Below are positions 28,845 through 30,720 of a stretch of DNA of 64,000 bases, piece by piece. Where the stretch lies: positions 1 to 64,000 of IMG/VR virus record IMGVR_UViG_3300034356_000609; one strand, given 5' to 3'. This DNA comes from a virus. The notes beneath the pieces are model-generated. The model ran no database searches and was not told the origin of the DNA. It saw only the letters and a list, made by a program, of their open reading frames with translations. The position numbers were made by a program, and so were the translations under genes. Numbering within the stretch: the first letter of the stretch is position 1; the number at the start of each line of letters is the position of its first letter.

Positions 28845-28874
28845 AACCCTTACCAACTTGGTGGGGGTTTTTTT
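28845..28874 (+). terminator. Terminator at the convergence of both genome arms
   Basis: AACCCTTACCA pairs with TGGTGGGGGTT (two G-U pairs) and is followed by seven T residues. The plus-strand arm ends here and the minus-strand arm ends at 28873. On the minus strand no U-run follows, so it is mainly a plus-strand terminator. Confidence 0.8.
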
Positions 28875-29154
28875 ATGCGTCGGGTAAATCTTTTAGGTAT
28901 AATACCTTTGGCTGATCTACGTGTTCTGTGAAGACAACCTGTAAGCCCTCTATACAGAGTATCTTTACTTCAAAGATGATGTCTTCGGACACGTCGTCAA
29001 TTAGCTTGAAGAGTTCTTTAATAAGAACTACATACTGTTCTTTAGTTAAAAGAATAGCATTAGGGTAGATACCCTTTTGTCTCTTTAACCCTGCATCTTT
29101 CTCAGACTCTAGGTAATAAGAATTGATTGCTTGTTGTACTTCATATAAGTTCAT
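28873..29154 (-). CDS. Unknown protein, 93 residues, last gene of the minus arm
   Basis: This encodes MNLYEVQQAINSYYLES to LKDLPDA. It begins with an amphipathic helix, then KGIYPNAILLTKEQYVVLIKELF, then strands IIFEVKILCIEGLQVVFTE. No family is recognised. It lies downstream of the secreted nuclease by 11 bases, so it may be part of the lysis cassette. Confidence 0.7.
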   Translation of the reverse strand: MNLYEVQQAINSYYLESEKDAGLKRQKGIYPNAILLTKEQYVVLIKELFKLIDDVSEDIIFEVKILCIEGLQVVFTEHVDQPKVLYLKDLPDA

Positions 29155-29165
29155 AACAGTAAATA

Positions 29166-29744
29166 TTACTGCACCTTATACTTAGTATAGTCTGTGGTAT
29201 TAGGTGCTTCGTTTGCAAAGTAATACACTTCTTTTTTATTTCCAAACTTTATGGTCTTATAAAAGGCAGTAGGTATAGTTGCACCTGTTGGTAGCTTAGC
29301 TGCCTTAGGGCCATAAATCACCCTTATCTCTACTTCTACTTTACTTGTCTTAGCCAACTCTCTCTCATATGCCTCAAGTAATCTCCACGCACCTCTGTTA
29401 AGTTTCTCGTGTTGTAAGATACAATTCAAGTAAGAGAAGGTCTGCCACAGAGTTTCTCTAGTACAGTTAAAGTCAGCTGCTGGTGCACAATGTCCTTTGT
29501 CCCATACATTTCCTTCGTAGTCTTTTCCGTCTGAGGTCTTAACACTATCGTTAGTGTAGAAGTCCATTCCTTTACGAGGATAAGAACCTGTAGGGCATTG
29601 TACTGTGTACCATACACGTTTAGGTTGTTGAAGGACTTCAGAATAAACACAAGAGTAAATAGGAGTTTTAATTAACACACTGTCTCTCTGTGAGTATACA
29701 GTAAGAGAATAGAGACAAAGAAGGAGTATTATAAGTTTTTTCAT
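29166..29744 (-). CDS. Secreted DNA/RNA non-specific endonuclease (NUC1/EndA-like)
   Basis: This encodes 192 residues. Residues 1-19 (MKKLIILLLCLYSLTVYSQ) form a classic Sec signal peptide. WDKGHCAPAADFNCTRE (near 80-97) matches the DRGHxxPxxDF catalytic motif with the general-base His. SYLNCILQHEKLNRGAW (near 103-119) carries the metal-binding Asn and the following residues of this betabetaalpha-metal family. The enzyme cuts DNA and RNA without strong sequence preference. A secreted form beside the holin and spanin genes suggests action in the periplasm or on the lysate, possibly reducing DNA viscosity or clearing competing DNA. Confidence 0.85.
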   Translation of the reverse strand: MKKLIILLLCLYSLTVYSQRDSVLIKTPIYSCVYSEVLQQPKRVWYTVQCPTGSYPRKGMDFYTNDSVKTSDGKDYEGNVWDKGHCAPAADFNCTRETLWQTFSYLNCILQHEKLNRGAWRLLEAYERELAKTSKVEVEIRVIYGPKAAKLPTGATIPTAFYKTIKFGNKKEVYYFANEAPNTTDYTKYKVQ

Positions 29745-29746
29745 GG

Positions 29747-30118
29747 TTATAAGATAAGACTAAAGATAGCAAGAATAGACATACCTAAGAATCCGTACTT
29801 GTACATCTTCATCTCAAGATTCTTGCGGTCTATCACACGATTAAGTCTAGTTACTTCTTTCTTTGACTCTTCTACCATAACCTGATAGTTAGGAACAATA
29901 GAATCCCTATACAAATTAATTTGCTGACTGTCTAAATGAATTACGTTCTTGAGAACAACTACTCTCTCTCTGGCTTTGATACCTTTGAGGAATTCGTTAT
30001 TCAACTCCTTTAGCGGTAAGCTGTCTAGAGATTGTGAGTAAGAACTTTGTGCCGTCAATATCAGGCATAGTGTCAAGAGCAATCTGAATAGTATCATACT
30101 TGAGGTTGATTTTTTCAT
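29747..30118 (-). CDS. Candidate spanin subunit with N-terminal signal and C-terminal membrane segment
   Basis: This encodes 123 residues from ATG 30118. An ATG six codons further upstream is possible, but the basic MKK start suits the signal. Residues 8-29 are a hydrophobic signal (ILFRLLLTLCLILTAQ) with a Cys at 18. Residues 50-100 are a helical rod (KELNNEFLKGIKARERVV, EVTRLNRVIDRKNLEMKM). Residues 104-123 (YGFLGMSILAIFSLIL) form a C-terminal membrane segment. A lipoprotein-like signal plus C-terminal anchor is the plan of T1 gp11-type u-spanins; the lipobox is not canonical. It overlaps the next upstream gene by 122 bases. Confidence 0.6.
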   Translation of the reverse strand: MKKSTSSMILFRLLLTLCLILTAQSSYSQSLDSLPLKELNNEFLKGIKARERVVVLKNVIHLDSQQINLYRDSIVPNYQVMVEESKKEVTRLNRVIDRKNLEMKMYKYGFLGMSILAIFSLIL

Positions 30119-30317
30119 AGTAACTAAATTGTTCATGTTTAAGTGTAGATAACGAGTCTACTCTACTGAGGAAACTTTCGTTGCGTTTCTCCATAGAGTC
30201 CATGTAAGACATAAATTTCTCTTCACTACCGCTACTTAAGCTTTGTCTTTCCCATAACAAAAAAGCTACTGTGATTAGTAGTAGCCCTATAACAATAACT
30301 TCAATCTTGTTTTTCAT
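29997..30317 (-). CDS. Candidate i-spanin (Rz-like) membrane protein
   Basis: This encodes 106 residues. Residues 5-22 (IEVIVIGLLLITVAFLLW) form one N-terminal membrane segment, followed by a periplasmic coiled-coil-like rod (EEKFMSYMDSMEKRNESFLSRVDSL). This is the Rz topology. Its 3' part overlaps the neighbouring spanin-like gene by 122 bases in another frame, the same nesting as Rz/Rz1. It is coupled to the holin gene by a 17-base overlap. The role assignment rests on topology and position. Confidence 0.65.
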   Translation of the reverse strand: MKNKIEVIVIGLLLITVAFLLWERQSLSSGSEEKFMSYMDSMEKRNESFLSRVDSLSTLKHEQFSYYEKINLKYDTIQIALDTMPDIDGTKFLLTISRQLTAKGVE

Positions 30318-30720
30318 TTACTTTATGTTGGTCGATTTTATCTAAGATTAACTGCAGTAACTCATTTTTAATTAACCCTGCTCTGGCTGCGTTCTTGAGT
30401 GCACTTATAAGCTGAAAGAGAATAAAGGGAGCACAGATAGTCTCACTTAGCCAGAAAGTACCTTCAAAGCCCTTCTCAATCATCAAGATACCTGTAAGCA
30501 TAAATACCCACACCATTAAAGTTTTAAGCACGCTAAGAGCTTTATTCGTTTTAAAGCCTTCCATCTTAGTTCCTGCCCATACCCCAAAGAATCCATCTAT
30601 AAACACAACAGCAACTACAGCTAAGTACTGTTCAGCATTATCTGCTCCTAGATTAAGGAAGTAAGTTCCTAAGAAAGCTAAGATAGTTGTACCTGTGTAT
30701 AAGAGGAAAGAGGTCTTCAT
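30301..30720 (-). CDS. Phage holin, multi-span
   Basis: This encodes 139 residues with four hydrophobic segments near 6-20, 30-49, 66-85 and 92-111. VVFIDGFFGVWAGTKMEGFKTNKALSVLKTL contains the D-x-x-x-G-x-x-A-x-K loop and S-x-K segment of the phage_holin_4/Hol44 type. The C-terminus is charged (LDKIDQHKVNEKQD). It makes membrane holes that trigger lysis. Its neighbours (spanin-like pair, secreted nuclease) form a lysis cassette; the endolysin is not in it. Confidence 0.82.
   Translation of the reverse strand: MKTSFLLYTGTTILAFLGTYFLNLGADNAEQYLAVVAVVFIDGFFGVWAGTKMEGFKTNKALSVLKTLMVWVFMLTGILMIEKGFEGTFWLSETICAPFILFQLISALKNAARAGLIKNELLQLILDKIDQHKVNEKQD

What the first reader, a model, noticed from the sequence alone, without database searches (positions are those of the whole stretch)
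29166..30720. Lysis cassette with secreted nuclease and nested spanin-like genes
A holin, two overlapping membrane genes with spanin topology (122-base overlap) and a signal-peptide endonuclease form one cassette. A secreted NUC1-type nuclease in a lysis cassette is unusual. It might digest released host DNA or neutralise DNA-based barriers after lysis. No endolysin is present in the cassette.
Basis: partly seen in the sequence, partly recalled or inferred. Interest (0 to 1): 0.65.

Follow-up and report, generated by a model that had tools for sequence, protein, structure and literature searches.

The report
Phage lysis cassette with cargo slot
A crAss-like phage of Bacteroidota-type bacteria ends its late genes with a lysis module whose spare slot holds an exported DNA-cutting enzyme, and in near-identical sister phages the same slot also holds a bacterial-style sensor–relay signalling system that recurs beside lysis genes in many unrelated phages, hinting that some phages may sense conditions before bursting their host.

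Summary
The minus strand encodes a PF05105-type holin (30301-30720), an N-anchored i-spanin-like protein (29997-30317), an overlapping signal-peptide/C-terminal-TM protein X (29747-30097) and an exported NUC1 nuclease (29166-29744). Both overlapping frames are genuine: synonymous change in the i-spanin gene falls from 0.51 to 0.19 inside the overlap. X has no lipobox, so it fails the o-spanin and u-spanin definitions. An endolysin candidate lies elsewhere in the record (94625-95257) beside a small holin-like gene.

The nuclease is cargo, not core lysis machinery. Holin, i-spanin-like and X stay together in every relative checked, but the nuclease is often elsewhere, including beside nucleotide-metabolism genes in myophages.

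The surprise is in the siblings. In phages with 94-97% identical flanks, a histidine kinase, a single-domain response regulator and a 185-aa coiled-coil/2-TM protein (p185) are inserted exactly between X and the nuclease. This module (HK in 78 and RR in 80 of 81 distinct loci) recurs in diverse phages, within 4.5 kb of a lysis gene in at least 56 of 81, beside four unrelated endolysin classes. p185 was not found in 84,980 GTDB genomes or 50,697 phage records. Signal-gated lysis is the most novel reading; it is untested.

The parts
30301..30720 (-). Holin (139 aa, Phage_holin_4_1 / PF05105 type)
   Evidence: PF05105 2e-5 above cut-off; phrog_199 holin; 64% identical homologue annotated holin beside GH19 endolysin in phage immuto
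29997..30317 (-). I-spanin-like gene (106 aa; N-terminal TM, periplasmic tail)
   Evidence: TM at residues 5-23; always between holin and X; no homologue in 50,697 phage records
29747..30097 (-). X: signal-peptide protein with C-terminal TM, partner of the i-spanin-like gene (start supported by conservation; longer starts at 30118 and 30136 possible)
   Evidence: no lipobox; no homologue in phages collection
29997..30097 (-). 101-nt dual-coding overlap of the two genes; it encodes X's whole signal peptide
   Evidence: ATG in 31/31 haplotypes; i-spanin pS 0.194 inside vs 0.514 outside
29166..29744 (-). Exported NUC1-type DNA/RNA non-specific endonuclease (192 aa)
   Evidence: PF01223 1.4e-24; Serratia nuclease alignment
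29688..29744 (-). Signal peptide region of the nuclease (MKKLIILLLCLYSLTVYSQ)
   Evidence: sequence; signal in 44/44 homologues
29490..29501 (-). Catalytic DKGH motif (H85; further N116, E124)
29690..29747 (-). Insertion slot: sibling phages (e.g. L015) carry HK-RR-p185 here between the X stop codon and nuclease codon ~19
   Evidence: window aligns to L015 up to 29747 (93.9%) and again from 29690 (97.2%), 2.4 kb inserted
28873..29154 (-). Small conserved protein without TM (93 aa) that closes the slot (resembles a 76-aa gene at the same place in distant relatives)
28845..28869 (+). Terminator-like hairpin with T run ending the convergent plus-strand block
   Evidence: not above shuffled expectation as a count

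Best explanation
The region is the lysis module at the 3' end of the long minus-strand late block of a crAss-like phage. SHOWN from sequence: a holin gene, an i-spanin-like gene and an overlapping gene X form an invariant triad with dual-coding overlap; downstream lies a variable cargo slot closed by a small conserved gene; here the slot holds an exported, catalytically complete NUC1 nuclease; in near-identical siblings it additionally holds a histidine kinase, a CheY-like response regulator and the coiled-coil membrane protein p185; an endolysin candidate with its own 2-TM holin-like neighbour is encoded 64 kb away. INFERRED: the holin permeabilises the inner membrane and releases the separately encoded endolysin; the i-spanin-like protein and X then act on the periplasm/outer membrane in a spanin-like way, X without the usual lipid anchor. 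The nuclease is Sec-exported late in infection, acts only on DNA outside the cytoplasm (periplasm, then the lysate) and is an accessory, not needed for lysis. Where present, HK-RR-p185 most likely gates lysis timing: the kinase (variable PAS/GAF/TM sensor) phosphorylates the output-less regulator, which signals to the p185 membrane hairpin or to the neighbouring holin.
For: Every locus that has X has the i-spanin-like gene, and the holin too where the contig reaches it; overlap dual-coding test; endolysin candidate at 94625-95257, phrog_33083 endolysin 2e-10 and phrog_3000 7e-36, homologues in crAss002 and other crAss phages; crAss-like terminase and portal/MCP PHROGs. Nuclease separable from lysis genes. 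Clean presence/absence of HK-RR-p185 between X and nuc. HK: HATPase_c 5e-13; RR: Response_reg 2e-8; H-box [LI]RHDMHSG 56/57, RR VFVDLNI 50/52. Module adjacency to four endolysin classes and two holin types, 56/81 distinct loci; in 11 long records the nearest peptidoglycan hydrolase is 0.2-7.4 kb away, Fisher P about 2e-6 to 2e-5 against uniform placement. p185: no homologue in 84,980 GTDB genomes or phage records.
Against: No expression data. X has no lipobox, and no lipobox spanin was found in the 99.8-kb record, so outer-membrane disruption by this pair is unproven. The endolysin candidate has no fold match. The window's own phage lacks the HK homologue, so the signalling part applies only to siblings. 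25 of 81 module loci show no recognised lysis gene nearby (some contigs are short). The phages are related in part, so counts are not independent events, and the 11 records were not a random sample.
Confidence: 0.65

Rival explanations
1. The nuclease is a functional part of lysis/release: released at lysis it digests host DNA, thins the lysate and frees virions, or clears extracellular DNA barriers.
For: It is the last exported gene of the lysis block in about 50 loci with intact active site and signal; late position implies presence at lysis.
Against: Linkage is lost in 27 of 79 loci and in whole lineages; in myophages the gene sits in a nucleotide-metabolism block.
Confidence: 0.3
2. The nuclease serves nucleotide scavenging or superinfection exclusion: exported to the periplasm/surface, it degrades environmental DNA for salvage or the DNA of incoming phages.
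For: In immuto it follows both ribonucleotide reductase genes and a resolvase; in L069/L072 it precedes a phosphoribosyltransferase and dCTP deaminase; two copies in one contig (L068, L069); in immuto, L070 and L071 it adjoins a cluster of other exported proteins.
Against: In the window lineage it sits in the lysis block, where export would come late; no uptake system was identified.
Confidence: 0.4
3. X is not a spanin partner but a lysis regulator (antiholin-like or membrane anchor) that merely overlaps the i-spanin-like gene.
For: No lipobox; signal peptide at one end and a TM at the other; a related phage carries a separate lipobox u-spanin-like gene elsewhere (L206 10633-11058).
Against: Invariant pairing and overlap with the i-spanin-like gene, as in known overlapping spanin pairs.
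Confidence: 0.35
4. HK-RR-p185 is an auxiliary host-manipulation cassette (e.g. rewiring host signalling) that only hitchhikes in late operons.
For: Two-component parts could cross-talk with host systems; some loci lack recognised lysis genes.
Against: Repeated placement beside four unrelated endolysin classes and holins; output-less RR nearly always followed by the virus-only membrane protein p185.
Confidence: 0.35

Closest known systems
Overlapping two-component spanins (Rz/Rz1 type)
   Same: Small N-anchored i-spanin-like gene overlapped by the start of the next secreted gene, next to a holin
   Different: Second protein has a type-I-like signal and a C-terminal TM, no lipobox; endolysin is not in the cassette
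Phage holins of PF05105 (TcdE/Cph1-like) family
   Same: Passes Pfam cut-off; homologues sit beside endolysins
   Different: Fails the TIGR01593 curated cut-off; function untested
NUC1 / Serratia-type secreted DNA/RNA non-specific endonucleases (1g8t)
   Same: PF01223, conserved His/Asn/Glu active site, signal peptide
   Different: Phage-borne clade, 55-100% identical among phages, 34-58% to genome-contig relatives (mostly marine Flavobacteriales/SAR86; the 58% one is a contig binned as Lokiarchaeota)
Prophage-encoded secreted DNases (e.g. streptococcal Spd-3, PMC3629212)
   Same: Phage-encoded exported DNase
   Different: Temperate phages of a Gram-positive host; here a crAss-like phage with the gene in a lysis block
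crAss-like phage lysis genes (PMC10136315)
   Same: Spanins/lysins among late genes
   Different: The spanin-like pair and the signalling module have no full homologue in deposited phages
Bacterial two-component systems (HK + CheY-like RR)
   Same: HATPase_c, H-box, receiver with conserved Asp (sibling loci only)
   Different: Carried by phages, fixed to a virus-only membrane protein p185, beside lysis genes, no DNA-binding output

Membership tests
Two-component spanin (i-spanin + o-spanin) | i-spanin: N-terminal TM and periplasmic domain | tested here: met
   TM residues 5-23
Two-component spanin (i-spanin + o-spanin) | o-spanin: outer-membrane lipoprotein with lipobox | tested here: not met
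   X has LTLC within the signal core, not a lipobox; no lipobox ORF in the cassette; lipobox as defining feature per PMC12596118
Two-component spanin (i-spanin + o-spanin) | overlapping or nested gene arrangement | tested here: met
   101-nt dual-coding overlap
Two-component spanin (i-spanin + o-spanin) | outer membrane disruption | not testable with these tools
   needs complementation assay
Unimolecular spanin | lipobox plus C-terminal TM in one protein | tested here: not met
   X has the C-terminal TM only
Holin PF05105 | Pfam gathering score | tested here: met
   25.1 vs 22.2 bits
Holin PF05105 | genetic linkage to endolysin | tested here: inconclusive
   met in relatives; in the window's genome the endolysin candidate is 64 kb away
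Holin PF05105 | pore formation at a set time | not testable with these tools
   experiment needed
DNA/RNA non-specific endonuclease (PF01223) | family score and catalytic His-Asn-Glu | tested here: met
crAss-like phage (Crassvirales) | homologous terminase/portal/major capsid protein | tested here: met
   (TerL 28-30% to crAss and Cellulophaga phi4:1/phi17:2 phages); formal taxonomy not tested
Two-component signal transduction system (window's own phage) | HK and RR genes | tested here: not met
   HK absent from G000; RR and p185 gave no tblastn hit in the window or the rest of the record
Two-component signal transduction system (sibling phages) | HATPase with H-box and receiver with Asp, adjacent | tested here: met
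   phosphotransfer not testable
Endolysin (94625-95257) | peptidoglycan hydrolase fold or activity | tested here: inconclusive
   phrog_33083 endolysin 2e-10; no PDB fold match

The most novel reading that the evidence does not exclude
A widespread class of phages, many of them likely Bacteroidota phages, carries its own two-component sensor system (histidine kinase, output-less response regulator, virus-only coiled-coil/2-TM protein p185) in the lysis module, so that lysis is gated by a sensed signal through protein phosphorelay rather than by a holin clock alone; the window's cassette is a form of this module that lacks or has lost the signalling genes.
Probability: 0.4. Interest if true: 0.9.

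Novelty: new variant of a known kind. Interest (0 to 1): 0.66.

Why it matters
When to lyse is the central decision of a virulent phage, and known timing control is by holin allele, antiholin or lysis inhibition. A phage-borne sensor kinase and relay fixed to lysis genes would be a new way to couple lysis to host or environmental state, and the near-identical pair (window without, L015 with the module) is a natural experiment. The spanin-like pair without a lipoprotein also bears on how the Bacteroidota outer membrane is breached. The exported nuclease shows that lysis operons carry swappable cargo.

Tried and rejected
Fold search of the endolysin candidate against PDB: nothing; model of moderate confidence. 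Fold search of p185: nothing; the model shows a long helix running into two TM helices. Profile comparison of p185 with the small 2-TM holin-like family hol87: no relation, so p185 is not shown to be a holin. CsgG-like idea for the lipoprotein at 90942-91718: no PDB sequence match. Searches for the nuclease, holin, i-spanin-like, X, RR, HK and p185 in deposited phages: only the nuclease, the holin and a short partial HK-like stretch matched. Canonical two-component or unimolecular spanin: rejected as membership because no lipobox. Literature: no paper found in the held library on phage-encoded histidine kinase/response regulator controlling lysis; the library misses subscription journals, so this is not proof of novelty.

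Full report
OBSERVATION. The window is part of a 99,809-bp virus record. ORFs at 30301-30720, 29997-30317, 29747-30136 and 29166-29744, all minus strand, are as described. They sit near the 3' end of a continuous minus-strand block that runs through portal, terminase, capsid, tail and giant proteins and meets a convergent plus-strand block near 28.8 kb, with a terminator-like hairpin at 28845-28869. The terminase is related to Cellulophaga phi4:1/phi17:2, crAss-like gut phages and a Leptolyngbya phage, so the phage is crAss-like.

THE LYSIS TRIAD. The holin passes the PF05105 cut-off. Its homologue in Flavobacterium phage immuto (64% identity) lies next to an annotated endolysin that matches GH19 in Pfam. 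The i-spanin-like protein has one N-terminal TM. X has a signal peptide and a C-terminal TM; the conserved Cys in its signal is not in a lipobox, and no lipobox ORF exists in the cassette. In every locus carrying X, the i-spanin-like gene precedes it, with the holin upstream wherever the contig reaches it. Across 31 haplotypes the ATG for a 101-nt overlap is always present. Pairwise synonymous divergence of the i-spanin frame is 0.514 outside and 0.194 inside the overlap, and X outside the overlap has pN/pS 0.22. Both genes are therefore real and the overlap is dual-coding.

ENDOLYSIN. None is in the cassette. At 94625-95257 of the record a 211-aa protein matches phrog_3000 (7e-36) and phrog_33083 'endolysin' (2e-10). 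It lies beside an 87-aa holin-like gene and has homologues in crAss002 and other crAss phages, one annotated as a peptidoglycan-binding protein. In other phages the same family occupies the endolysin position next to holin-like genes. Its fold search gave nothing, so the assignment is by association.

NUCLEASE. It is an exported NUC1 enzyme: PF01223 1.4e-24, DKGH, Asn and Glu residues conserved with Serratia nuclease, signal in 44/44 homologues. It is not tied to lysis. 27 of 79 nuclease loci show no triad gene. In G007-G012 the holin lies elsewhere in the record than the nuclease; where the region was read far enough (G006's divergent copy, G007-G010), the triad is followed by a 439-444-aa gene (phrog_22398/exonuclease-like) instead. 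In immuto and relatives the nuclease lies among RNR, QueE, PRTase and dCTP-deaminase genes, and one contig has two copies. Genome-contig relatives are 34-58% identical, mostly from marine Flavobacteriales and SAR86. I therefore read it as an accessory exported DNase occupying a cargo slot; its substrate (lysate DNA, environmental DNA or incoming phage DNA) is undecided.

THE SLOT AND THE SIGNALLING MODULE. Eleven nuclease loci carry a histidine kinase, a 145-aa response regulator and a 185-aa membrane protein (p185) directly upstream of the nuclease; in nine of these X lies just before the kinase. Domain calls: HATPase_c 5e-13, Response_reg 2e-8. Between the window and L015 the flanks are 93.9% and 97.2% identical, and the module begins exactly after the X stop codon (29747) and ends before window position 29690, inside the nuclease signal-peptide region: a clean presence/absence. 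The window's own phage has no kinase homologue.

WIDER DISTRIBUTION. Scans with p185 return hundreds of viral candidates and no confirmed relative in 84,980 GTDB genomes or 50,697 phage records. Among 81 distinct p185 proteins, HK is adjacent in 78 and RR in 80. The kinase H-box [LI]RHDMHSG is kept in 56/57 and the receiver motif VFVDLNI in 50/52, while the sensor part varies (2 TM + PAS-like, two PAS, GAF + two PAS). Within 4.5 kb, 56 of 81 loci show a recognised lysis gene: the same holin family, the small holin-like family, or one of four unrelated hydrolase families (the 211-aa family, GH19 with PG_binding_1, M15 peptidase, phage lysozyme). In 11 long records the nearest hydrolase is 0.2-7.4 kb away in 65-254-kb records (combined P about 2e-6 to 2e-5 under uniform placement). 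That test excludes three records in which no hydrolase of these families was found, and the records are partly related and were not drawn at random. Ten of 12 such records lack a detectable relative of this phage's terminase, so the module crosses phage lineages.

MECHANISM. Shown: gene content, order, conservation, presence/absence. Inferred: late expression; holin releases the remote endolysin; the pair acts spanin-like; the nuclease is exported and accessory; in module-bearing phages the kinase senses a signal and the output-less regulator acts by protein contact on p185 or the holin to set lysis time. p185 is predicted as a small N-terminal domain, a ~100-residue helix and a two-TM hairpin, suited to signal transfer to the membrane, but it is not related to the holin-like family tested.

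VERDICT. Observation confirmed; interpretation partly supported. The cassette itself is a new variant of phage lysis modules; the sister-phage signalling module is the part that would surprise a specialist. I found no paper describing it in the held library, with the caveat that many journals are not held.

Noticed in passing
L012 3660-5841, L015, L027, L028, L029, L041, L044, L046, L052 and about 70 further distinct loci (L126-L265): Phage-borne histidine kinase + single-domain response regulator + coiled-coil/2-TM protein (p185), repeatedly beside holin/endolysin genes; p185 not found in GTDB genomes or deposited phages.
   Followed up: yes
G000:92281-94170 (L003 10782-12671): Secreted 629-aa phage protein with cohesin domain and a type IX secretion C-terminal sorting domain (PF18962 7e-12), which implies use of a host T9SS.
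   Followed up: partly
G000:88530-91718 (L003 7031-10219): Cluster of exported proteins (C-type lectin, putative outer-membrane barrel, lipoprotein with lipobox) conserved in Flavobacterium phage immuto gp013-gp019 and in L070/L071, where it adjoins the nuclease.
   Followed up: partly
L068 and L069 (contig IMGVR_UViG_3300020042_011666): Two diverged exported NUC1 nucleases in one contig, each next to nucleotide-metabolism genes.
   Followed up: partly
L106 95-818 and L107 3247-4121 (G006): One 116-kb record carries two different holin/i-spanin sets near its two ends, one 97% identical to the window's; possibly two lysis modules or a chimeric assembly.
   Followed up: no
L108 2697-4016 and homologues in L107, L109-L111: A 439-444-aa gene (phrog_22398, weak exonuclease match) takes the nuclease's place after X.
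   Followed up: partly
L268: A 3.9-kb contig binned as Lokiarchaeota encodes a 58% identical nuclease; probably a misbinned phage contig.
   Followed up: no
L206 10633-11058: Related phage with the signalling module encodes a classical unimolecular-spanin-like protein (lipobox LMSC, C-terminal TM).
   Followed up: no
L126 1760-2457, L225, L206: Second, unrelated pair of an N-anchored coiled-coil protein and a secreted coiled-coil protein without lipobox, directly downstream of p185 and, in L126 and L225, before endolysin and holin-like genes.
   Followed up: partly
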